Shown piece by piece: positions 18,085 to 32,591 of a DNA stretch of 64,000 nucleotides (position 1 is the first letter of the stretch; the number at the start of each line of letters is the position of its first letter). The position numbers and the translations under genes are program-made. This DNA comes from Stachybotrys elegans. Lineage: Eukaryota; Ascomycota; Sordariomycetes; Hypocreales; Stachybotryaceae. Location of the stretch: assembly GCA_020746835.1 (NCBI GenBank), contig JAGPNK010000003.1, forward strand, positions 372,001-436,000, written 5' to 3'. The notes below the pieces were generated by a model. It searched no databases and had not been told where the DNA came from. It was given only the letters and a program-made list of their open reading frames with translations.

Positions 18085-20016
18085 ATGAAGCTCTCCCCGA
18101 CATTCGGCCTCCTGGCTGCCGCCAGCACCACCATGGCTGCTCCCGGCGCTACCAAGCTTCCCGACTATGAGTACGTTGTGGTCGGCTCCGGCGCCGGTGG
18201 TGGTCCTCTGGCCGCTCGCCTCGCCATGGCTGGTCACCGAACCCTCCTGATCGAGGCTGGTGACGACTTTGGCTCGGTCAACTACACCGTCCCCGCCTAC
18301 TCGGCCAACTCTTCCGAGGACCCGGAGATTTCTTGGAACTTCTTCGTGCGCCACTACGCCGACGAGGAGCGCCAGGCCCGTGACTTCAAGACCAGCTACG
18401 ACACCCCCAACGGCGAGTACACGGGCCTCAACCCTCCCGAGGACGCCGTCATGAAGGGCACTCTGTACCCGCGCACTCAGGCCCTCGGTGGCTGCACTGC
18501 GCACAACGCCCTCATCACCGTGTACCCTCACAGGTCCGACTTCGAGTACCTCGCAGAGCTGACGGGCGATGACTCGTGGGCTCCTGACCACATGCGCAAG
18601 TACTTCGAGAAGCTCGAGGAGAACAGGTACCTGGGCGGACAGATTGCCCCCGGCCACGGCTACGACGGCTGGCTGGGCACCGAGACGGCTCCCCTGAGCA
18701 TCCCTCTCGGCGACGCTCAGCTCCTCAGCATGCTCGGCGGTGGTGCTGTGGCCCTCAGCACCGCCACGGGCGGCACCATCACCATCGACGACCTCATCAT
18801 CGGCGATGCCAACGCTGACACCCCTACCCGCGACACCACTCCTGGCTACTACCAGATTCCCCTCTCCAGCCGTGACGCCACTCGCGTCGGTCCTCGCGAG
18901 CTCATTCTGGCCGTGCGCGACGCCAAGTTCGAGAACGGCACCAAGATGTACCCTCTCGACGTCCGCACCAACGCCTTTGTCACCAAGATCAACTTCGACA
19001 AGTCCACGCCTCCCCGCGCCACCGGCGTCGAGTTCCGCGACGGCAAGCACCTGTACAAGGCTAGCCCTCTCTCCGACGGCTCCAAGGGCAAGCCCGGCAG
19101 CGTCAAGGCCGAGCGCGAGGTCATCATTGCCGGCGGCACCTACAACTCGCCCCAGATCCTGAAGCTGAGCGGTGTCGGTCCCGCCGAGGAGCTCAAGAAA
19201 TTCAAGATCCCCGTCGTTGTCGACCTGCCCGGTGTCGGCACCAACCTCCAGGACCACTACGAGATCTCCGTGCAGGGCAACGCCCCCATGGACTTCCCTG
19301 CTTTTGAGGGTTGCACTTTCGGCCTCTACACTGACGAGGACCCTTGCCTCGACAGGTGGAAGAACCCTGTTCTCGGCGACCGCGGCATCTACTCGTCTCC
19401 CGGTCCCGCCGCTGCCATGTTCTACCAGACGAGCGCAGCTGAGAAGGGCGAGTTTGACGTCTTCGCGTTCGGTGGTCCCATCAACTTCCGCGGCTACTTC
19501 CCCAAGTACGCCGTCAACGCCACCATCGAGCACGACTGGTTCACTTGGGCTATTCTCAAGGCCCACCCTCGCAACACGGCCGGCAGCGTTACCCTCCGCT
19601 CCGCCGACCCCCTTGATGTCCCTGACATTGTCTACAACTACTTCGACACCGGAAACGGCGACTCGGACGCCGACATCAAGGCCATGACCGAGGCCATTGC
19701 CCTCGTCCGTGACGCCTTTAGCAGCCAGCCCGTTCCCTTCACCGAGGTCCTCCCCGGTGCTGATGTCACCAGCGACGAGGACCTGGCCGACTACATCAAG
19801 GACGCCTCGTGGGGTCACCACGCCTCGTCGACCTGCCCCATCGGCGCTGACGATGACCCGATGGCTGTCCTCGACTCGAGCTTCCGCGTCCGTGGCACTG
19901 CTGGCCTGCGTGTGGTCGATGCTTCCGTCTTCCCTCGCATTCCCGGCACCTTCACTGCTGTGTCGACGTACATGGTCGCTGAGAAGGCGGCTGACGTGAT
20001 CCTCAGCGGTCTGTAA
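18085..20016 (+). CDS. Secreted GMC oxidoreductase (FAD-dependent)
   Basis: Intronless, 643 aa, with codon use far more GC-rich than its neighbours. A signal peptide (MKLSPTFGLLAAASTTMA) is followed by the FAD-binding motif VVVGSGAGGGPLAARLA (about residues 31-47) and LLIEAGDDF. The family signature block TLYPRTQALGGCTAHNALI is present. Near the C-terminus, SWGHHASSTCPIG holds the conserved catalytic His, and VVDASVFPRIPGTFTAVSTY ends the FAD domain. The family oxidises alcohols, reducing oxygen to hydrogen peroxide or passing electrons to quinones. The PGTF ending resembles the clade of PatE-like and other secondary-metabolism GMC enzymes more than glucose oxidase. The substrate is not predictable from the sequence. 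Confidence 0.93.
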   Translation: MKLSPTFGLLAAASTTMAAPGATKLPDYEYVVVGSGAGGGPLAARLAMAGHRTLLIEAGDDFGSVNYTVPAYSANSSEDPEISWNFFVRHYADEERQARDFKTSYDTPNGEYTGLNPPEDAVMKGTLYPRTQALGGCTAHNALITVYPHRSDFEYLAELTGDDSWAPDHMRKYFEKLEENRYLGGQIAPGHGYDGWLGTETAPLSIPLGDAQLLSMLGGGAVALSTATGGTITIDDLIIGDANADTPTRDTTPGYYQIPLSSRDATRVGPRELILAVRDAKFENGTKMYPLDVRTNAFVTKINFDKSTPPRATGVEFRDGKHLYKASPLSDGSKGKPGSVKAEREVIIAGGTYNSPQILKLSGVGPAEELKKFKIPVVVDLPGVGTNLQDHYEISVQGNAPMDFPAFEGCTFGLYTDEDPCLDRWKNPVLGDRGIYSSPGPAAAMFYQTSAAEKGEFDVFAFGGPINFRGYFPKYAVNATIEHDWFTWAILKAHPRNTAGSVTLRSADPLDVPDIVYNYFDTGNGDSDADIKAMTEAIALVRDAFSSQPVPFTEVLPGADVTSDEDLADYIKDASWGHHASSTCPIGADDDPMAVLDSSFRVRGTAGLRVVDASVFPRIPGTFTAVSTYMVAEKAADVILSGL

Positions 20017-20516: not shown

Positions 20517-22843
20517 ATGCCGCCGCCGACTGTCGGCAACATTTCTGCTCATCCTGCTGCTCTTGCTTCTTCGCCATCTCCCTCTACCCCTCCTGTACCA
20601 CCGCCACCTCGTTATAACGGCAGCACGGGAGCTCCCAGCGAGTCGGATGAAGACGCGAGGCCGGCAAAGCGTCAGAAAACCCAGGCCTGCCTGCGTTGTA
20701 GACGGCGCAAGGTGTGTAGTCACCCTTCCCCCCCTTCCCTAGCGCTTGGGCAGTTGCTCATTACTGATGCGCGCGCGTAGCAAAAATGCGACAACCAGAA
20801 GCCGTGTGGCAATTGCTTGAAGGCTGACGAGCAATGCTACTCTGCCTCCCACCCACCCAGGCACGTCGAGGGTGTGGGTGCGGGTGCGGCTGAACTTCTG
20901 GGCGAGAATCACCTCACTCGCCTCGCTGACATCTCTGCCCTCGAGGAGCGCATATCGCGAATTGAGCAGATGAGTCTACGGCCTGCCCTAAGCAACGATC
21001 TTGGCGACTCGGCGAGCTCTCAAGGCCAAGCTGCAGAGTCCCTCGGGTACCATGCGACCGACCCGCTGCCCTCTGCCTTCCAAGAGGCCGTCCCTCTCCC
21101 TAGGAGTACCCCGGCCGTCGCACTGTTGGCCACCTTTGCGGCGCACGCGACAGACCAAAGTTCGCCCCGTCCCCGCGCAGATTCCGCGGATAGATGCTAC
21201 GCTAGAGGAGACGTTGAGGGAGTCGTTGATGTCGCCATAGAAGAGGCCCTGTTCACTACCTATGAGGACAAGGTGCACTGGCGGTACCCCTTTCTGCGTT
21301 TGCATCAGCTCAGAGACCGTAACACGCGGTCGCCAGGACCCTGCACTGCCTTCTTTGTCCGCATGATTTACTCCATCGGTCTCCTCCTGGAGAGGAACAG
21401 CCGCGCCATTCCTTGTGGGCATAGGCAGGAAGACTTCTACCGCATGGCCGTCACAAGGTATCTTGCCCATGTCTTCAACCAGCCCGACCATCTGCTGCAT
21501 ATCCAGGCTTACCTCCTGCTTGCCATGCACGCCCTCTACTCGCCGTCCACGGAGCGCATCATCACCATCACATCTGCAGCCATGCGCTACTGTGTCATGG
21601 CTCAACTACACTGCGCTGCTGCCGAGCCCGAGCCCGTCGATGTAGCCGCCCGGGTCCGCATCCAGATTCGCCGCCGCATCTTTTGGTGTGCGTACAAGCT
21701 TGACCGCACGGTGGGCGCAACCTATCATCTCCCATTCTCCCTTCCCGATGCGCAGATCACGGCCAAGTTGTACGCCAACATTGACGACAGGGAGCTGGAG
21801 GAGAAATGCCGCGCTGCGTTTCCCGACGACCCGCGGGGGGTTCTGCCTTTACAAACGTTTCGGCTGCTCTCCACGTCGTCTACTGTCGGCAGATCCAGAG
21901 CAAGATCCTCAACTCTACGCTTCACCGCGACTTCAGCAGCCACATCGATCGCAACGACCGCTGGCGACTCCAGGTTCTCGACAAGTTGGATCGATGGAAA
22001 TCCCTCTGGGATTGCTACGCCGACACGCCATCAGTGAAACTTGGTGGTAACGACTGGATCAACATGATGTACAGCTACAGTCTCTGCATGTTGTATCAGC
22101 CAACCAAGGTTTCAGTGTTGAACTCGGCCGGCGTTTGGACCGTCAAAGCCTGCGTGCAGGCCTGCCTCATATTCCGCAAGTTTCAGAGGGACACGCAAGT
22201 CGCCGAATTATGGCTAGGTCTTCTCACTCAGTTCAAGTGCGGTGTAGCACTCCTCTACACCTTCTTCGCCACGCCACCACAGGTACGGCCGGCCGTGTAC
22301 GAGCATCCCGATGTGTCCGAGGCTGTAAGAGCATGCAGCATCACGCTCACCCTCATAGCCGAGCGCTGGCCAGAGTCTAGGTGCATCAGGAACACGTTCG
22401 ATATCCTTGCACGAGAAATCCCGCTCTTTGAGCATGCGTCAGCAAGGATTCCGCCCGCCACGCGGAGGGTGCGGCAGGAATCTAGTGACGCCCTGCTCTC
22501 ATTACTCAAGGAGCTGGAGCCCATTGTCATCCACCGCGATACGCTACGGATGATCCGAGAGATTGCAACAGAAGATTTTCCTTCGCATAGCCAGGCTCCG
22601 GCAGAACCTGCGGCCCCTCCGCAGATATACCTGGACAGCAACGTTTCAACAGCACCACCACCACCGCCACCACAACAGCAAGACTACGTCTCGCCTGCAC
22701 GACATCCTGGGATTGTGGAGGACTTTTTCCAGCCATTGACACCCTCTGGCCTCGACATGGACGGCCTGGGGCTGGACCAAGAGAGCTTGGCAGACATTTC
22801 CATTGAGTTTCCTGCCTATTTCGATCTATCCGACTACGTTTGA
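20517..22843 (+). pseudogene. Zn2Cys6 transcription factor with a one-base frameshift
   Basis: Exon 1 is 20517-20711 and the second begins at 20781. The zinc cluster spans the intron (CLRCRRRK, then QKCDNQKPCGNCLKADEQC). A Fungal_trans-type middle domain follows, with RRRIFWCAYKLDRTVG. The reading frame then breaks at a run of six G (21835-21840). Upstream protein runs on to DDPRG in one frame; downstream coding (from GSAFTNVSAALHVVY to the stop at 22843) is in another, and one more G would join them. No intron fits, because the sequence on both sides is conserved-looking coding. Either this is an assembly error in a homopolymer or the regulator is truncated after about 430 aa. It lies beside the lyase/hydrolase/transporter set and is its likely regulator. 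Confidence 0.8.
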
Positions 22844-22982
22844 TGCCTGCTCGACTTGGCTTCTGATCCGTGTCCTATCAGAGCGTCTACGCTCCCAAAC
22901 AGGTATATTGCTAAGAATAGACGCTAATTGCTCAATCGGCTACGCTGTATTTTTAATAGATCGAATACCCGCCTGTATAACA

Positions 22983-25038
22983 TCACTGCCCAGCGGTTTT
23001 GGAAGCCGGTGATTCGGGACAAGTGATTTCTCTGCCCGCCACTACGTCGAAAAAGGCATCGGCCAGGTGGCCTCCTCGTGCGATGGAATTGCCATTCTTG
23101 TCTGTCGGCAAGTTGGCGATGGCTGGCGCCGCGACTTCACGCATGTAATAGGACATGCCTCCCTTGACAAATTTGTCGGCAAACTGCCGGGCCTGCAGAG
23201 TAGGACCTTGTATAGCCCAGACGGGCTGGAACTGCCAAACTACGCCCATCTTGGCTATGTCGGAATGAAATGACTCGACCTCCTCGGGCGAGTAGCCCCC
23301 CTTTGAGAAGTCGTAGGCTCCGGTGAAGCCAAAGGCGAACATGCGGTCGGGGTAAACAGCCCTTACGGCCTCGTGAAACTCGCGCATATCTTTCTTGTCT
23401 AGAAGCTAGTGGTTAGCTTTCGCTTTAACAACAAGGACAAAACATATGAATGGGCAGGTTAAGGTTGGGTGTAAGAGTGCCATGAGGTGTGTAGGAGCTT
23501 ACTCGGTTTATCTGCACAATACGATTAGCTGGATGAAGACATTAGATAAAGAGTGCTTGGACTTGGGCTCACCTTGGCGACTCCATGTCAAGTCTCCCAG
23601 TGGTGCTGCAAGTAAACATCGGTCGATGACGGCTTGGACGGACCACTTCCACATGTACTGCCCAAGAGGCGTCCTAGGAATTTCCCAGTCGAATGGGATG
23701 CATCGCCCAACCAAACCCTTGGCAAGCGCTCGTCGCTCGTGCAGCGGCACAACACGGCCGGCGATACTCTCCAGGTAGGCTTTATACTGTTCCTCGGTGG
23801 CATTGGCTCGGACAGCCTCGTCAAATGTCATCAGCCCTGCAGAAGCCTTCCACTCTGCCTTAACAGTGGCATAGTCCTTTCCTTCCCTGTTGGCCTCTTC
23901 TACAACCTGAGCGAAGGGGGGGACATCCACTGTGGCACCCAGGACGTATGGGTGATCCCTGGGGTCCGACACGCTGGGTCGATGTGAGCTGATTTCCGTT
24001 CTCGCAAGCCGCCCTGTGCAGTCGAGTATATCCTTGCTTACCTAGTGATGAGTTCGGCACTGTTGCTGTCACAACGACACAGAAGCATCGTATCGACCCT
24101 ACATTCCCCAGCATAAGTCAGCTGCTTGGCCACAAATACAAAAGAATAACAAAGTGGAAGATTGGGCGATGTCTCTGTAGGGAAAGTCATACCCCATGAT
24201 ATCAAAAGTCATCCTGATCGTGGTAAGCCTCGATAGGTATTCCGAGGTGGACACAATGGTCCTGCCCTCGCCGTTGGTGAACTTCTTGAGGCCTATAGCG
24301 AGGTCGTCGATATGGATCATGGCGACGCCCGACTCGACAAAGTTTCGCGCCAGCTTCATGCAAGCCGTCAGCGAGCCGAAGCCCATGTCGGCGTCGGCGA
24401 CAATGGGCAGCATGTAGTCGATGCATTCCAGATGCTGGCGCTCCTCCTTTGGATAACGCAAGCGCAGCTGTTGCTGGCGCTGGTCATGGAAGAGCTGCAT
24501 GTTGAAGATGCGCCTGACGATGGACGGTATCAGATCGGCGGGATAGTCGGCATGATCCTCGCCCGGAAAGGTTGCCTGCGCATGTCCTGCGAGTCCTCCA
24601 GATATGTAGACGGTCCGCACTGGTCTAGTGTGAGTCTTGGACACCCGGGGAAGGTAGCGAAGAATGAAGGAGTTTTCATACTGCTGTTGGCCAACTCCTT
24701 GGCAATTATTGGCTCAGTTGTGCCAACCGTCAGCTCACACGTCCCATTGGCCTTGTGCTCCTTGAGCATACGCCATAGCTTCCGGCCCTGCGCGCTGGAA
24801 GGGTACTCGATCTTGAACCCAAGATTGCGCAGCGCAGCAATTGACTTGGCAGAGTACGGCCTGTGAGGTTGTAAGCCGCCCGAGACCAAAGACTGCAAAG
24901 GGCCTCGTCCTGCCAAGAGACGCTCACTGACCGTTTGATGTGTGCCTGCCGCTCGGTCTGCCACCAAGCCTCAATCTGTCGCACCTCGGCATCGAAGGCC
25001 TCGCTCTCGGCCTCGACGCTGTCCCACTTGGTTGCCAT
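22983..25038 (-). CDS. Isocitrate-lyase-family protein with altered active site
   Basis: Seven exons on the minus strand: 25038-24932, 24860-24682, 24619-24193, 24098-24042, 23973-23573, 23511-23503 (9 bp) and 23398-22983. They join to 531 aa, near normal ICL length. The ICL fold is clear: HIKRPYSA near the N-terminus, TVYISGG, DHADYP, VADADMGFGS, DIMGVD followed by a CRCDSNSAELITS block, and VVWQF. The catalytic loop KKCGH of isocitrate and methylisocitrate lyases reads KKFTN, so the general-acid cysteine is gone. The preceding EDQ reads DDL, and the usual SPS carboxylate-binding block is replaced by FGFTGAYDF. It should still bind Mg2+ and a small oxo- or hydroxy-acid, but probably not cleave isocitrate. 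It shares a promoter region with the M20 gene. Confidence 0.88.
23399..23572 (-). other. 9-nt micro-exon between two introns of the ICL-like gene
   Basis: Intron 23572-23512 ends in GTGCAG, micro-exon 23511-23503 (ATAAACCGA) follows, then intron 23502-23399 begins GTAAGC. With it the protein reads TWSRQDKPNKKDMREF. This aligns without a gap to the ICL family stretch with WM..KKPD. Skipping it stays in frame but drops three residues. Confidence 0.6.
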
Positions 25039-25654
25039 TGGATTTTCGTTATCAGTTGCTTATTGGAGCTGAACAAGACCCTGCGCGGTAGAATATGTTG
25101 GCGAGATTAGACGAGATATAGTCAAGTACAGCTTGTCAGGTCCTCGTGCGCATGTCCTTTTCAGTCGCGAATCGTTCTGGTCCACAAGGCAGTCCGATCT
25201 AAGAAGCCGTTCCCTATAGCCCAATGTCTGTGTTCGGCTGCGCTCGGAAACTGGCGGGCAAAGCCGAATCTAGGCATAATCTTATCAAGATTGGGGTCAT
25301 ATCCATAGACCCTTAATGGATTTGTATAATACTAGCTTATCCCAAACAATCAAAGATGTGCCAAGTTGCTTCGCCCAAAGCCGCCGGGGCCATCGGGACC
25401 CATCGGGACTCGTCGGCGCTCGTCGGGGTTCATCGGGCCCATATAAGCTGGATATGTTGGCTTTCGGGGGTGACGGCGACCAGCCAGGAGCATACGGCAC
25501 ATACGGCACTGCTCGCCCGATGTAGGGCTAGAATACCATCATCCGTGCTCTTCGTGTCTGGGAGGAACAAATGATTACTTTTGGGTCCGAGTCGTAGCAT
25601 TCCTTCGTAGATGTTTCATCCTAGAAAGCAAACAGCGCACCTGTCTTATCCGTA
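25039..25654. promoter_or_regulatory. Divergent promoter, ICL-like and M20 genes
   Basis: A 616-bp spacer between start codons at 25038 (minus) and 25655 (plus). It contains the 10-bp array at 25391-25440 and the TATA-like ATATAAG at 25441, oriented for the M20 gene. Confidence 0.7.
25391..25440 (+). repeat. Five 10-bp units with CATCGG/CGTCGG beside a TATA box
   Basis: The units read CATCGGGACC, CATCGGGACT, CGTCGGCGCT, CGTCGGGGTT and CATCGGGCCC with no spacing. Every unit has TCGG at the same place, so CGG triplets recur once per helical turn. ATATAAG follows at once. Confidence 0.85.
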
Positions 25655-27005
25655 ATGATTGTACCAACTACCCTCGACGTGGCCGCCAAGGCGCGCTCCC
25701 TCATCATAGACGAGACTGACCGTCTCCGGGCCCAGCTCGACAAGGTCTGCCTCGACATCCATTCCCATCCAGAGCTGTGCTATGAGGAGACATTCGCGCA
25801 CCAGACGATTTGCGACTTCCTCGAGACCAACGGCTTCACGGTGAAGCGGCACGCCTATGGCATAGGTACGTGCTTTGAAGCCGAGATTGGCACCGGGGGG
25901 CAGCCCGTCATCTACTGCGCCGAGTACGATGCTCTCCCTGGCATCGGACACGCCTGCGGGCACAACCTCATTGCTCTGTCGAGCATCACGGCCTTTGTTG
26001 CTGCGGCCAAGGCAGCCACCACGCTCGGCCTTGCAGGCAGGGTCCGCCTGCTGGGCACGCCCGCCGAGGAGGGCGGAGCCGGCAAGGTCAAGCTTCTTGA
26101 CGCCGGCGCTTTCGAGGGCGCGGCGGCGGCGCTCATGTCGCACCCAACCAGCATGGGCCGCATCAAGGAGGTCGAGGGGCTAGCAGGGGCCGCCGGTCTC
26201 GTCACCGTCGCCGCTTCCAAGCTGACGGCCGAATTTTTCGGCAAGGCTGCGCACGCCGGCGCGACGCCTTGGCAGGGTCTCAACGCTCTCGACGCCGCCG
26301 TGAGCTCCTATGTCAACATCTCCATGATGAGGCAGCAGATCCTGCCGGCAGATCGCATCCACGGCGTCATCACCAACGGAGGCGATGCGCCCAACATCAT
26401 CCCCGAGAAGACGAGCATGGTCTATGCCGTCCGTAGCAGAACAGCCGATGGCTGCCAAGACTTGGTCAGAAGGGTCAAGGCCTGCTTCGAAGCGGCAGCG
26501 ACCGCCACAGACTGCAAGGTCAATGTCGAAGTGTTAGTACACCTGGACTTACTCTTTGCACTATGACCATGTTACTGACCACCTTTGGGTGCAGACCCCT
26601 CTTCTACGCTGATCAGATTCTTAACTCAGCACTTTGCGAGGCTTTCACTGAGGAGATGGGTTTCATGGGTGACAAGTTCCTGCCTATGGCCAAGGAAGCC
26701 GTCTCGGCGTCTACTGACATGGGTATGGCCCAGCTCTCACCGCACTCCTGCGTCTGGTAGCACACATACTGACCCCTCGCATAGGCAACGTATCACATGT
26801 CGTGCCATCATTTCATTGCTCATACGGCATTCACTCGGGCGACGCGTCCAACCACACCGCCGGCTTCGCGGCAGCGGCAGCCACACCAGACGCGTTGGAC
26901 AGAGCCGTCAGGGTTGGAAAAGGATTGGCCATGCTGGGTATCCGGCTTCTCATAGACGGGGAGTTCAGCCAAAGCGTGAGAGCGGCGTTTGAGCTTGCAA
27001 AGTAG
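25655..27005 (+). CDS. M20-family metallo-amidohydrolase (M20D/PM20D2-like)
   Basis: Three exons (25655-26532, 26595-26722, 26785-27005) join to 408 aa. The metal-binding and catalytic sites are intact: HSHPELCYEE, AEYDALPGIGHACGHN, and TPAEEGGAGK with the general-base Glu pair. The dimerisation domain follows, with AEFFGKAAHAGATPWQG. The M20D group hydrolyses amide bonds of N-acyl amino acids, aminobenzoyl-glutamate and unusual dipeptides. No signal peptide is present, so it should act in the cytosol. Facing the ICL-like gene over a shared promoter, it plausibly releases an acid or amine from an imported amide (inference). Length and motifs are normal. Confidence 0.92.
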
Positions 27006-27335
27006 GCTAAGCGGGGAGAAGACGAGGAAAGTCCAGTAAACATACAGTTGCACAAATACCTGGGTCAAGTCGACGATTGGGGTGCTGCTAATTCTTATTT
27101 AAGGCGGTGTTACGCAGAGATTTCTTGGGTCTACATGGTCTACTTAGGTTACATAAACAGTACATGTAATATATTAGATGTCTATCATGCTTTGCCAATC
27201 ACCAAGTTTCTAGTTTACTTTCTTTGAGCTGTCTCCTGCGCCTGACAACCAAACTACAACTTCCCCGCCGACGAAGAAACCCCATTTAATAGACTCTACT
27301 CTTTCCACAGTGGACACTGAGGGGACGGTTATGCA

Positions 27336-28051
27336 TTATGACTGTATCCGAGCGGATATTTCACCCATGGAAGCCACTTGCTTGGACATGCCAGCGGCAA
27401 GGATCGAGATGTCACGACCCGCCATGGTGAATCTAGAACACGTGAGTTTCAAGACACGGCAATTATCAGAAGAGGCGTTCAGCACGTACCTTATGTTTGA
27501 ATGGCGCTTAGCAAAGTGCTCAATGAGGTCTGGCCTCAGCTCCATGCCACCGAGTCCGACGAAGACCTGACGGCCACCTACACTAGCCTTCTGGGCTGCT
27601 CTGGCAATCTTATCGATGGCCTCATGAAACTCCTCCTTATCATACTGGCCCGTGATTCCTAGTCTGTTGTACTAGTCAGTGGCGAATCCAGAGAGTGGGA
27701 GGGCTATGCATTGGTTGTGTTCTTACTCCATGCTCAAGTCTGCACACCCGATAAGGAGCGCGTCAAGGCCCGGTACAGCGGCAATGGCCCTTTATTAGTA
27801 GACTATTGTCAGCGCCAGAACAGTTGTGATAGCAGTCAGTTGGCGTTACTTACTCTACATTTTTCATGCCTTCCCTAGTCTCAATCATGGGCATGATTAG
27901 GACGGCATCATTGACGATCTCCGCTACAGTAGTAGGCGGGATATGGGTCGCATACTGCAGCAGGGGCTGGACCATTGTTAAAGAGCGGCGACCCTGAGAC
28001 CCAGCATATGCAAATTAGCTTCTTGGGCTTCCGATTGGGTCTTCTTGTGCC

Positions 28052-28090
<39 letters not shown>

Positions 28091-28555
28091 GCAATGTACT
28101 AACTAGGGGCGGGTATTTGGCTGCATTGACACATGTTTGAGCTGCTTCGACAGTGTCGACGTGTGGCACAATAATGGCCTGGCATCCTCCGTCCAGGCAT
28201 CGGGATATCCATTGGGGCTCACAAGTGGGCACAACCACCATTGGCGTAATCCTGGCCGCAGCTTAGTACAAGGGGATGCATATAGGAGGGAGTAGACTTA
28301 GACTAACCCAACATTGAGGCAGGCAACTGAAATTTCCCTGACGGTTTCGATGCCAATGGCAGTATGTTCCAGATTCAACAGAAGAGCTGAGTATCCAGCC
28401 CGCTTGGCAACTAGGGGGATCTCGGTAGAGAAGCAGAGACGCAGGCCAAACGAAGTCGCCAGCTTGTTCTCCAGCATTACCTTCTTAACCAGATTGGGCC
28501 GGCAGAGCTCACTCAGCTCCATTGGGACATCCTTGGTGGCGGTGGTGGAAGCCAT
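27336..28555 (-). CDS. HpcH/HpaI-family aldolase with a missing active-site Arg
   Basis: Six exons on the minus strand: 28555-28308, 28251-28104, 27993-27854, 27789-27727, 27663-27490 and 27432-27336. They join to 289 aa. HpcH/HpaI landmarks are LNLEHTAIG (His kept, preceding Asp now Asn), IIVPHVDTVEAA, YPPLGRRS, MPMIETREGMKNVEAI (metal Glu kept) and ADLS (metal Asp kept). In class II HpaI/GarL aldolases the segment after the His reads VVRP or RVPTNEP, and the Arg binds the pyruvyl carboxylate. Here it reads VVVPTCEP. The family retro-aldol-cleaves 4-hydroxy-2-oxo acids to pyruvate plus an aldehyde. With Arg lost the substrate or reaction is probably different. It is divergent from the MFS gene. 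Confidence 0.88.
28054..28088 (+). repeat. (GA)n microsatellite in aldolase intron 2
   Basis: An uninterrupted run of about 17 GA dinucleotides lies inside intron 28103-27994. It reads as a polypyrimidine tract (CT)n in the transcript, a few tens of bases before the acceptor. Confidence 0.9.
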
Positions 28556-29075
28556 GGTTGTGCTGTGGACGTATGTACTTGGACCTAGGTGTTGGTGCAG
28601 ACACGAGATTGGGGAGATGGTGATCAAGAAGACGGCCGCTGCTGCACTTGCATGGCTGGTTTTCCTTTGGCATGCGATAAGTTGCTCGATTGGGGCGTGC
28701 CGAACAGCGAGTCAACCATCGGACACGGACGGGGGCATAACGTCTAATCATCGGCGTGGGCTCCGACGGGGGCCGATGGCTGGGGGCGAGGCGAAAGATA
28801 GGCTAGTGGCGTCCAGTAGACCGGCTTCTCTGTGGGGATGCATGATAGAACTACAGTATGTTGGCTCGTTTATGGGGATGTTATCTTTGTTTGACGCACG
28901 TCCGTCCGGGGTCACCTGCAGGGACGCTGGAGATATATGACCTGTGCAGCCGCTCGATCGACAAGGCCGTTGTTCTCCATTCTCAGAGCCATCAACGAGA
29001 GAGCCGTGGTTCTTTGCAGGAAAAATCCCACCTTTGCCAACACCCCTTTTTTTCTCCTCGCAGCTTCTCGCCCCC
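28556..29075. promoter_or_regulatory. Divergent promoter, aldolase and MFS genes
   Basis: A 520-bp spacer between start codons at 28555 (minus) and 29076 (plus). It holds CATCGG at 28717 and 28749 and, on the minus strand, at 28773. The same core recurs in the ICL-like/M20 promoter. Confidence 0.65.
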
Positions 29076-31216
29076 ATGGAAGACGACAAGAAGATGACGC
29101 AGACTGTGACTCGCAGCAGCAGCGTCGCCGATGGGCAGGCCCAGGCCAAGCCTCTCTCCTTCGGGAAGAAGCTCGTGTACCATCTCTGGGATCAGGATCA
29201 GCACCTCAAGAGTCCCGAGGAGCGCAAGCTCGTCAGGAAGCTCGACTTTGGCATCCTCATCTGCGCAACTCTCGGCTGGGTCCGTAGCTCCAACCTGACG
29301 GCGGCCCTTTTGCTGACTTGTTTGTACAGTGGATGAAGTACATTGACCAGAATAACATTGTCAATGCCTGTGAGTCGCCCTGCAAAGTCGTTTGTCCGTA
29401 GCTGTCTTAACGCCCTTTGCAGACGTCAGTGGAATGAAGGAGGATCTGAACATCCAGGGCAATGAGTACACATACATGATCAGTAAGTTGCGCTCGACTC
29501 CCCTAGACGCACATGTCGAATCAAGTGCAAAGTTCTGACTTGAGACGAAAACAGTGTGCTACACCATCGCCTTTGCCATCATGCAAATCCCGTCCAACGC
29601 CATTGCTCTCAAGATCCGCCCTCGCATCTGCATTGTTACATGCGAGATTGGATGGACCATCTTCACGTACATGCCCATCTGTCCATTCCTCTCAGTTCTT
29701 CCGTCTTGTTCTATACGGCTCACACCTCTCCAGTTTTGCCCAAGCAGCCGCCACCAGCTCCCGACAGATGTACGCGTTCCGCTTCATGGTCGGCCTGTTC
29801 GAGTCTGGCTTCTCCCCCATCATCATCTTCCTCCTCGGCTCCTGGTACACCAAGACGGAGCTGGCTAAGCGAATGGCTATCTGGCACATCACGGGCTTCT
29901 TTGGTTCGGCCACCTCCGGATTCCTCCAGGCTGCTGTGCACAGGACCCTTGATGGCAACCTGGGCCTTGCTGGCTGGCGCTGGATGTACATTGGTAAGCA
30001 CTCTCTCCCCAATTGTGACGTCTACTGACAGAACGCAACCCGCTGACATTTACCGGTAGTCTGTGGCTGCATGTCTCTCCCCGTTGCTCTCTCTGTCTGG
30101 TGGCTTCTCCCTGATCTGCCCCATAACACCAAGGCTTGGTACATCACCGAGGATGATAAGAGAATGGCCCTGCACCGCTCTGCTGTCCAAGGCAAGGTCC
30201 AGGTGACGGGTAAGCTGGACAAGGCTCTTGCTAAGCGCATGTTTGGCAGCTGGCGGTGGTGGGTTCTTTGCCTCACATACATCCTGGTGAGTTCTTCCTG
30301 GGTGAGGGCTGCAGTGAGCTCCTTTTTTGCTAATTGCGGCGTCTACAGTACGGAAACTCATGCCAGGGTGTATCTTACTTCGCCATCTACCTCAGTATGT
30401 GCATCGTTTTACACAGTCGTCAGCGGCCACTAACCTCTCCATAGGAAATTCTGGGTACAGCGTCAGCCAGCGCAACATTATCCCCGCCTGCGCCAATCTC
30501 GTGTCCATGATCACCGATTTCACCTGGAGTTTCATGTCCGACTATACCCAGAACCGCATCTATTGGATGGTTGGTCCTATTGTACGTGACTCATTTTCAT
30601 TACTCGTGGTTGGCGAAGAAGCGATAGAGACTGATGGCTGACACGTATCCTTGAACAGATGTGCACAACCGTCGTGAGCTCGGCCATGTTGACTGCTTGG
30701 CCGGCCGACGATGCCGCTCGCGTAGCTGCATTCTTCCTTGCCGCAAGCGGTTTCGTCACGGGTATCACCTGGGTTAGTATTCACCGCCTGCGAGAAGTCG
30801 TAAATCCAAGACCCTGCCGCATTTACTAACCGCCTGCCTACAGACTTGGGCCAATGAGGTCAACGTCGGAAACGCCGAGGAGCGTGCCTTGACCATTTCC
30901 AGCATGAACGGTCTCTTCTACGCAACCGCCTCCTTCCTTCCCATCCTCATCTTCCCCCAGACCATGGCTCCTAAGTTTGAGCGAGGTTTCCCTTCGCTTC
31001 TGGGTTTTGCGCTCGGTGCATGCATCCTCATGCGTAAGTGCCCTCGCCTTTAACAGCTCCGGCCCTGAACTGACGTACTTGTCCCTCCTAGTCTTGGCAG
31101 ATTTCTTGCACAAACGCCAAATGCGCCTCGAGGCAGAGAAGGCTTCCGACGAGATTCCTGCCGAGGCCGTTAAGAAGCAGGATGACAGCGAGAAGGAGAA
31201 GGAGTTGGAGCTGTAG
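29076..31216 (+). CDS. MFS transporter, anion:cation symporter (Liz1/Fen2/Tna1-like)
   Basis: Eleven exons (29076-29279, 29330-29369, 29423-29482, 29555-29666, 29734-29993, 30060-30286, 30349-30394, 30445-30581, 30659-30772, 30844-31033, 31092-31216) join to 504 aa. The protein has about 12 membrane spans. Motifs are typical of the ACS branch: KLDFGILICATLG, YIDQNNIVNAYVSGM, then MVGLFESGFSPIIIFLLGSW with WYTKTELAKRMA. The family imports small carboxylates such as pantothenate, nicotinate, allantoate and biotin precursors, with protons. A plasma-membrane importer here fits a pathway starting from an external organic acid or N-acyl compound. The substrate cannot be read from the sequence. Confidence 0.92.
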
Positions 31217-31871
31217 ATGCCTGTATAGGTAGCCTTGCGCAACGTATAGAATATCTTGTGGTGTCTTTTCTGATTCGATCCCTGCCATAGTTGCTCTCCT
31301 AGAGGCAATCATCAGGGGATTAGGGTTGCCTATGGGGCTTATAGAAACAGTAGTTGAAAGAAGCTGATACCAAGACCTATAAATGAAATCCGGCGTGATT
31401 GTGACATGGAATATTGTGTCTTGGCTTTTAGGGACTCGAGCTATCATGCCTGGTGCACTTGATCCAGGCCACAAGAGTTAACGGAGGTGGCCAAAATCAT
31501 CCCAGCAAAGGTCACAAAAGATCAGGCAGCACATCAAGGCGGACCGAGGCAAGCAGGCAAACCGTCGGAGGTGTGTGGCCAATGGTCATCAACCTGGGAC
31601 ATTCCGATATCGCTAACGGAAATCCTCATAGATTATGTACGCTGAATGCGGAGAGTAGGTGGTAATATTACAGGTGGCGCTAGAGTATGCCTTGACGCCA
31701 ATATATATACATCGTAGACAGACCTCGGGAAGACGCAGATGGCGAAGGTCTCTGCTTCGCTTGCGAATAATTTCTCGTACACGGCCGCTCCGTCCAAAGT
31801 CGACTCTCCAAAACTCCGGACAGTGATACCAACACAGCCAATCCAAAGTCATTGCTTTATAGTATGCGTTC
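31217..31871. other. Convergent intergenic spacer
   Basis: No gene seen; 3' ends of the MFS gene (plus) and TIM17 gene (minus). Confidence 0.5.
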
Positions 31872-32591
31872 CTATAGGGGGGCTTCGTTCGTCGGAGGGG
31901 GCTGTACCTGTAGGGGCGCAAGTCAGTATCAACAGCGACATAGATAGCAGCTCGCTGCCAAAAGCAGGCCTGGGGGATGCACGAGGTACCCACATCCAAC
32001 TTAGTGCTGCCAGCCATCATCTTCTGGAAGCCGATGCCGACACCCTCAATAACTGCCAGCAAGACTGCACAGCCGATGGCACCGTTTCTTGCCGCCTTGT
32101 AACCGCCACGGATGGCCAGAGAGCCACCAGTCAGGAAACCTGCGCCGATGGCGTTCCACGGGTCCTCCTTCTTTCGTAGGCCCTTGATGGCGCAGTCTGG
32201 ACGAGGTTAGATGTCGATGCGGGCAAAGGGGACGAGCGAGGGTGCGGCTAACCGTATGTGCTAAAGAGGCCACCCCAGACTGCGGTTATTGTCAGCTTCC
32301 CGATCGTGCGTGCAGACAGCCAGCTTTGCTACGCACCACCAAAGTTTCCTCCCAGGACGGGGGCGCGCATCTTGATGGCGGTGATGGCGCCTATCCTTCG
32401 CTCGCCGTAGGGACTGTTGCGGAAGCCCTTGATACCGTGCCATACGGTACCGCCGATGGCGCCCATGGCGAAGGCACCTCCGAAATCCTGTGGTGCGTCG
32501 TTAGCATCGTCGATGAGTGTGTCAGGCGTCGACCGGCTGCAGGGCGTACATTGAGGATGACGAGAGGGCAGGGATCTCGCGAGTGATCCAT
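31872..32591 (-). CDS. TIM17: Mitochondrial inner-membrane translocase subunit TIM17
   Basis: Five exons on the minus strand (32591-32550, 32487-32337, 32279-32253, 32196-31994, 31907-31872) join to 152 aa. The sequence is strongly conserved: [14 protein letters not shown] at the start, then [34 protein letters not shown] and [10 protein letters not shown]. Tim17 is a core subunit of the TIM23 complex that carries presequence proteins across the mitochondrial inner membrane. It has four membrane spans and an N-terminus in the intermembrane space with conserved acidic residues (D2 and D6 here). The last intron uses a GTGGGT donor, and the final exon encodes only [11 protein letters not shown]. 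Housekeeping gene, intact. Confidence 0.95.

What the first reader, a model, noticed from the sequence alone, without database searches (positions are those of the whole stretch)
20517..31216. Candidate undescribed catabolic cluster: regulator, ICL-like protein, M20 amidohydrolase, HpaI-like aldolase, ACS-type carrier
Five neighbouring genes of compatible function lie within 11 kb, and the four enzyme/transporter genes form two divergent pairs. The order suggests import (MFS), amide cleavage (M20), then two TIM-barrel lyase-fold steps. Both lyase-type proteins depart from the canonical active site, so the pathway probably handles a substrate that neither standard isocitrate lyase nor HpaI uses. 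I know of no described fungal cluster with this combination, but I cannot search.
Basis: partly seen in the sequence, partly recalled or inferred. Interest (0 to 1): 0.82.

Follow-up and report, generated by a model that had tools for sequence, protein, structure and literature searches.

The report
Conserved fungal organic-acid gene cluster
A mould carries a small, apparently co-controlled group of genes, found side by side in some other fungi too, whose two key enzymes have altered active sites shared by their fungal relatives, so the group probably handles an organic acid that nobody has yet identified.

Summary
The window is Stachybotrys elegans. Four of the five genes have clean spliced models; three match deposited proteins at 100%.

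The cluster is more than chance. ICL-like and HpaI-like orthologues share a contig in 11 of 20 species where I listed both; M20 sits with one or both in 8 of 11 named records. Locus tags are consecutive in Fusarium sp. DS 682. The two divergent promoters share a rare 10-bp-phased motif: 24 matches in 43.4 Mb, 5 of them here.

Both TIM-barrel enzymes have altered active sites that are conserved, not decayed. The ICL-like protein has KKFT where ICL has KKCGH, Phe at the Cys position in 120 of 120 listed rows. The HpaI-like clade lost the catalytic Arg and Asp and gained another Arg, but keeps its metal ligands.

The M20 enzyme looks ordinary and is a lineage-restricted addition. Microdochium groups with Hypocreales, suggesting transfer.

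Best reading: co-regulated uptake and breakdown of an amide-linked organic acid by two non-canonical metal-dependent enzymes. Substrate unknown, direction inferred. Eight paper searches aimed at it found no description.

The parts
20517..22843 (+). Zn2Cys6 regulator gene (Zn_clus + Fungal_trans); intron 20712-20780; frame interrupted near 21838-21893
   Evidence: the two sides read separately, not mended
22983..25038 (-). ICL-like protein, 531 aa; exons 24932-25038, 24682-24860, 24193-24619, 24042-24098, 23573-23973, 23503-23511, 22983-23398; KKFTNGEG (residues 207-214) in place of KKCGH
   Evidence: model; 100% match to deposited protein
25391..25436 (.). five CRTCGG units with 10-bp period in the ICL/M20 divergent promoter (25039-25654)
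25655..27005 (+). M20 amidohydrolase (PM20D2 / Xaa-Arg dipeptidase-like), 408 aa; exons 25655-26532, 26595-26722, 26785-27005
27336..28555 (-). HpaI-like class II aldolase-fold protein, 289 aa; exons 28308-28555, 28104-28251, 27854-27993, 27727-27789, 27490-27663, 27336-27432; Arg70 position is Val89, Asp42 position is Asn61, clade-specific Arg264
28763..28778 (-). CRTCGG-N4-CRTCGG pair in the HpaI/MFS divergent promoter (28556-29075); further CATCGG units at 28717 and 28749
29076..31216 (+). MFS carrier, probably of the organic-anion type, 504 aa, 11 exons

Best explanation
A conserved, co-regulated fungal metabolic cluster. Inferred working: an MFS carrier imports an organic anion; a catalytically ordinary M20 amidohydrolase (in the Stachybotrys/Fusarium/Microdochium form) frees an acid from an amide; two metal-dependent TIM-barrel enzymes act on the acid. 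The ICL-like enzyme keeps most of the Mg2+/2-oxoacid half of the ICL site but lost the Cys loop and the succinate half, so it should cleave or hydrolyse a 2-hydroxy or 2-oxo acid whose leaving part is not succinate. The HpaI-like enzyme keeps the metal ligands but has lost Arg70 and Asp42; a new conserved Arg264 at the end of strand 8 may replace them. A Zn2Cys6 protein, perhaps the neighbouring one, probably binds CGG-N7-CGG direct repeats in the two divergent promoters. SHOWN: gene content, linkage, conserved site changes, shared rare motif. INFERRED: substrate class, direction, step order, co-regulation itself and the regulator-motif pairing.
For: Linkage: ICL-A and HpaI orthologues on one contig in 11 of 20 species with both; M20 with one or both in 8 of 11 named M20 records (counted); consecutive tags IL306_013121/013122/013123, FGRMN_1286/1287, FGADI_5803/5804. 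Motif: 24 matches of CRTCGGN4CRTCGG in 43.4 Mb, 4 in one promoter and 1 in the other, the other 19 each more than 40 kb from the next; with one mismatch allowed the window still has only these five, against a shuffle mean of 1.14, and 1 of 100 shuffles reached five. Residues: F at the Cys position in 120 of 120 listed ICL rows; HpaI clade V in 61 of 62, N in 65 of 65, new R in 59 of 59, against R and D in 55 of 55 others. Metal ligands kept in both. Confident models on the expected folds. The genome keeps two KKCGH copies elsewhere, so this gene is not its only ICL.
Against: No substrate, assay or expression data. ICL-A and HpaI are on different contigs in 9 of 20 species (3 of these may be different assemblies). 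M20 close orthologues are named from three genera only; F. graminearum and S. chartarum (2 strains) have M20 with no listed partner. The ICL-like protein passes NCBI's isocit_lyase equivalog cut-off (353.2 vs 275.9 bits), so residual ICL/MICL activity cannot be excluded by sequence. The motif was noticed by eye in both promoters before the genome scan; single CRTCGG units are as dense in one other place of the window (600 bp from 31561, 5 units) as in the HpaI/MFS promoter; the motif is absent from the regulator's own promoter. The regulator reading frame is doubtful.
Confidence: 0.6

Rival explanations
1. A biosynthetic or tailoring cluster: HpaI-fold and ICL-fold proteins build or trim a polycarboxylic natural product and the MFS carrier exports it.
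For: HpaI-fold relatives with biosynthetic roles are among the structural matches: macrophomate synthase 1izc and citrate synthase SbnG 4tv5 (1izc). Patchy distribution and apparent transfer are also typical of secondary-metabolite clusters.
Against: No synthase of the usual kinds (PKS, NRPS, terpene cyclase) was hit in what I scanned with Pfam: the five genes and 9 other window ORFs, not every ORF. An M20 hydrolase with intact motifs and a carrier nearest organic-anion importers fit uptake better.
Confidence: 0.2
2. Propionate or glyoxylate metabolism: the ICL-like protein is a 2-methylisocitrate lyase with unusual loop residues, as several database names claim.
For: Name given to P0007, P0008 and P0108; TIGR01346 above cut-off.
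Against: The Cys of KKCGH is absent in 120 of 120 listed rows and its His is present at the aligned place in only 1 (P0008); the NLSPS-type loop is replaced; the same genome has two KKCGH copies. The names look transferred by similarity.
Confidence: 0.1
3. Oxidised-sugar catabolism, for example N-acetylglucosaminic acid from oxidised chitin: import, de-N-acetylation, then aldol cleavage of a 2-keto-3-deoxy acid.
For: HpaI relatives named GarL, YfaU and RhmA are 2-keto-3-deoxy sugar acid aldolases by name and the carrier's best NCBIfam model is a D-galactonate transporter, below cut-off; bacterial precedent for the logic in PMC9537276 (passages read).
Against: No deaminase or dehydratase among the five genes; loss of the Arg that binds the C4-OH in HpaI (PMC8560999, passages); gives no role to the ICL-like protein.
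Confidence: 0.05
4. Chance neighbours: five common fungal families that happen to lie together.
For: The two lyase genes lie on different contigs in 9 of 20 species; that such families are common in fungi is general knowledge.
Against: Consecutive locus tags in three Fusarium genomes, shared contigs of 45-150 kb in several species, shared rare promoter motif.
Confidence: 0.04

Closest known systems
Isocitrate lyase / 2-methylisocitrate lyase (PF00463; A. nidulans ICL 1dqu)
   Different: KKCGH is KKFTN; SGW is SGG (A or G in most relatives); TGHGG is MGFGS; NLSPSFNW is GFTGAYDF; IED is IDD.
HpcH/HpaI class II pyruvate aldolases (TIGR02311, GarL, SwHKA) and macrophomate synthase
   Different: Arg70 to Val, Asp42 to Asn, new Arg264; 105.9 bits against a 368.8 cut-off.
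Xaa-Arg dipeptidase / PM20D2 (7yh4), M20 amidohydrolases
   Same: EYDALPGIGHACGHN, GTPAEE and following motifs conserved; above the TIGR01891 cut-off.
   Different: No defining difference seen; substrate unknown. The PM20D2 name is the one sources give to relatives.
Fungal catabolic and xenobiotic clusters such as FDB1/FDB2 of Fusarium verticillioides (PMC10512309, passages read)
   Same: Hydrolase, carrier and fungal regulator side by side.
   Different: In the passages read, no cluster combines an ICL-like protein with an HpaI aldolase; 'lyase', 'HpcH' and 'M20' occur 0 times in the main text.

Membership tests
Isocitrate lyase (enzyme) | ICL fold and Pfam ICL domain | tested here: met
Isocitrate lyase (enzyme) | NCBI isocit_lyase equivalog cut-off | tested here: met
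   TIGR01346 353.2 vs 275.9 bits; counts against my reading
Isocitrate lyase (enzyme) | catalytic KKCGH loop (motif as stated in PMC11982470, passage) | tested here: not met
   KKFTN here; F at the Cys position in 120 of 120 listed rows
Isocitrate lyase (enzyme) | succinate-side loop NLSPS (role recalled) | tested here: not met
   GFTGA here
Isocitrate lyase (enzyme) | cleaves isocitrate or 2-methylisocitrate | not testable with these tools
   needs an assay
HpaI pyruvate aldolase | fold and two acidic metal ligands | tested here: met
HpaI pyruvate aldolase | catalytic Arg70 (role stated in PMC8560999, passage) | tested here: not met
   Val89; V in 61 of 62 rows with a residue in the fungal clade
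HpaI pyruvate aldolase | NCBI HpaI equivalog cut-off | tested here: not met
   105.9 vs 368.8 bits
M20 amidohydrolase, PM20D2-like | M20 domains, amidohydrolase cut-off and metal-site motifs | tested here: met
Anion:cation symporter (Dal5-type) MFS | MFS fold and ACS subfamily | tested here: inconclusive
   MFS_1 met; TIGR00893 134.6 bits below its 395 cut-off
Zn2Cys6 regulator | Zn_clus and Fungal_trans domains in an intact gene | tested here: inconclusive
   both domains found; frame interrupted near 21838
Fungal metabolic gene cluster | conserved adjacency in other species | tested here: met
   consecutive tags in three Fusarium genomes (two or three genes each); same contig in 11 of 20 species for ICL+HpaI; carrier and regulator not followed
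Fungal metabolic gene cluster | co-expression | not testable with these tools
   no expression data; a shared promoter motif only

The most novel reading that the evidence does not exclude
The KKFT proteins are a large fungal subfamily of the isocitrate lyase family with a different, undescribed reaction, and the HpaI clade uses a relocated arginine; here the two are wired together into a new organic-acid pathway that has moved between fungal lineages as a unit.
Probability: 0.4. Interest if true: 0.68.

Novelty: new variant of a known kind. Interest (0 to 1): 0.55.

Why it matters
A widespread fungal branch of the isocitrate lyase family is named in databases as isocitrate or 2-methylisocitrate lyase although the catalytic cysteine is absent in every row examined here. 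A cluster that ties one branch to an HpaI-like enzyme, a carrier and an amidohydrolase gives a handle for finding what these enzymes do, and warns that glyoxylate-cycle and methylcitrate-cycle annotation in fungi may be partly wrong.

Tried and rejected
Rejected: the ICL-like gene as the organism's only ICL (two KKCGH copies exist). Rejected: decaying pseudogene enzymes (changed residues conserved across species). Weak: GMC oxidoreductase 18085-20013 as a sixth member; the stretch between it and the regulator has no CRTCGG unit. The Tim17-family ORF at 31613-32206 looks like the right-hand edge. Literature: ten paper searches ran. Eight were aimed at the cluster or the KKFT subfamily and gave no description in the listings; two searches returned no paper. 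Searches (species; HpaI residues) had other aims. The library lacks most subscription journals. Neighbourhoods in other fungi could not be read directly: no fungal contigs other than the window's own genome were reached. The listings are capped: 120 of 207 ICL, 120 of 332 HpaI and 120 of 7936 M20 hits were shown, and for ICL and M20 only the 7999 candidates sharing most words were scored. The trees used 39 ICL, 33 HpaI and 15 M20 rows that I picked; several nodes are weak, and M. bolleyi sits nearest Fusarium in the ICL tree but nearest S. elegans in the HpaI tree. The structure models give no coordinates here, so the place of Arg264 is read only from the secondary structure.
Full report
OBSERVATION. 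The window is bases 372001-436000 of contig 23 of a 43.4 Mb fungal genome. Three of its proteins are 100% identical to Stachybotrys elegans records. I built spliced models with GT..AG introns. The ICL-like, HpaI-like and M20 models equal the deposited proteins over their full length. Families are confirmed by Pfam and NCBIfam. Two divergent pairs exist: ICL-like/M20 around 25039-25654 and HpaI-like/MFS around 28556-29075.

M20 AND CARRIER. The M20 protein is closest among solved sequences to Xaa-Arg dipeptidase 7yh4 (230.5 bits) and keeps its motifs; it exceeds the TIGR01891 cut-off. The carrier is an MFS protein whose best NCBIfam model is a D-galactonate transporter, well below cut-off, so its assignment to the anion symporters is only likely.

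LINKAGE ELSEWHERE. The protein lists give the length of the longest contig of each record, so identical lengths in one species mean one contig. In 11 the contig is the same: S. elegans, F. fujikuroi, C. orchidophilum, M. bolleyi, F. heterosporum, F. beomiforme, Colletotrichum SAR11_59, F. acuminatum, Cadophora DSE1049, Karstenula and Fusarium DS 682. In 9 it differs: Xylariomycetidae FL2044, Xylariaceae FL0016, Xylariales PMI_506, Pestalotiopsis NC0098, Seiridium cardinale, Lecanosticta, and three where different assemblies may be compared (C. acutatum, C. noveboracense, Zasmidium). Four of the shared contigs are 45-150 kb long, where chance sharing would be about 0.1-0.3% each for an assumed 45 Mb genome; on the ones of 2.8-4.4 Mb (6-10%) it says little. 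Of 11 named M20 rows of 72% identity or more, 8 share a contig with the ICL-A or the HpaI row of that species; F. graminearum and two S. chartarum strains do not (no partner listed). Consecutive tags: IL306_013121 HpaI, 013122 M20, 013123 ICL; FGRMN_1286 ICL, 1287 M20; FGADI_5803 M20, 5804 ICL. Linkage of carrier and regulator elsewhere was not tested.

TREES. In the ICL tree S. elegans, Microdochium bolleyi and Fusarium form one clade (support 1.0), apart from the other Xylariales-type rows; in the HpaI tree the same set forms a clade (0.997); in the M20 tree M. bolleyi sits inside the Stachybotrys/Fusarium set (39, 33 and 15 chosen rows; inner nodes often weak, and the nearest neighbour of M. 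bolleyi differs between trees). Since Microdochium is placed with Xylariales (recalled), this suggests transfer of the three genes together. The HpaI clade also includes Tremellomycete yeasts, nested among ascomycetes with moderate support.

SHARED PROMOTER MOTIF. In the ICL/M20 promoter five CRTCGG units lie exactly 10 bases apart (25391, 25401, 25411, 25421, 25431). CRTCGG-N4-CRTCGG occurs 24 times in the whole genome, against 60 for the reversed control, so it is not generally enriched. Four of the 24 are in this array and one is at 28763-28778 in the HpaI/MFS promoter; the other 19 are each more than 40 kb from the next. At the rate set by those 19, a 520-bp promoter should hold 0.0002. 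In the window no other match appears even with one mismatch (5 found, shuffle mean 1.14, 1 of 100 shuffles with five or more). Caveats: I had seen CATCGG in both promoters by eye before fixing the pattern; counted as single units, a stretch from 31561 is as dense as the HpaI/MFS promoter; the regulator's promoter has none. Direct repeats CGG-N7-CGG suit a Zn2Cys6 protein, which is an inference.

LITERATURE. Of ten searches of the open full-text library, eight were aimed at the cluster or the KKFT subfamily; none listed a paper that I could recognise as describing this gene combination. I read only passages of PMC11982470, PMC8560999, PMC10512309 and PMC9537276; the other papers were seen as search listings.

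VERDICT. A real, conserved, probably co-regulated cluster with two non-canonical lyase-fold enzymes. The kind of system (fungal metabolic cluster) is known; the combination and the two active sites are not described in what I could search. Substrate, direction and order of steps remain open.

Noticed in passing
window 21838-21893: The regulator's reading frame is interrupted near a G run; either an unusual intron of about 53 nt removes a helix that looks coding, or the frame is broken. Not resolved, not mended.
   Followed up: partly
G000:C4:1188933-1190378 (L008): A second KKFT-type ICL-like gene in the same genome (deposited as P0057, checked), about 52% identical to the first.
   Followed up: partly
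window 28054-28088: A perfect GA repeat (17.5 units) lies inside an intron of the HpaI-like gene.
   Followed up: no
window 18085-20013: Single-ORF GMC oxidoreductase gene directly upstream of the regulator; its start looks like a signal peptide by eye only.
   Followed up: no
window 31613-32206: Tim17-family domain on the minus strand just past the carrier, a likely housekeeping right-hand border.
   Followed up: no
proteins P0140, P0151, P0155, P0166: The altered HpaI clade also occurs in Tremellomycete yeasts, nested among ascomycete sequences with moderate support, suggesting transfer between phyla.
   Followed up: partly
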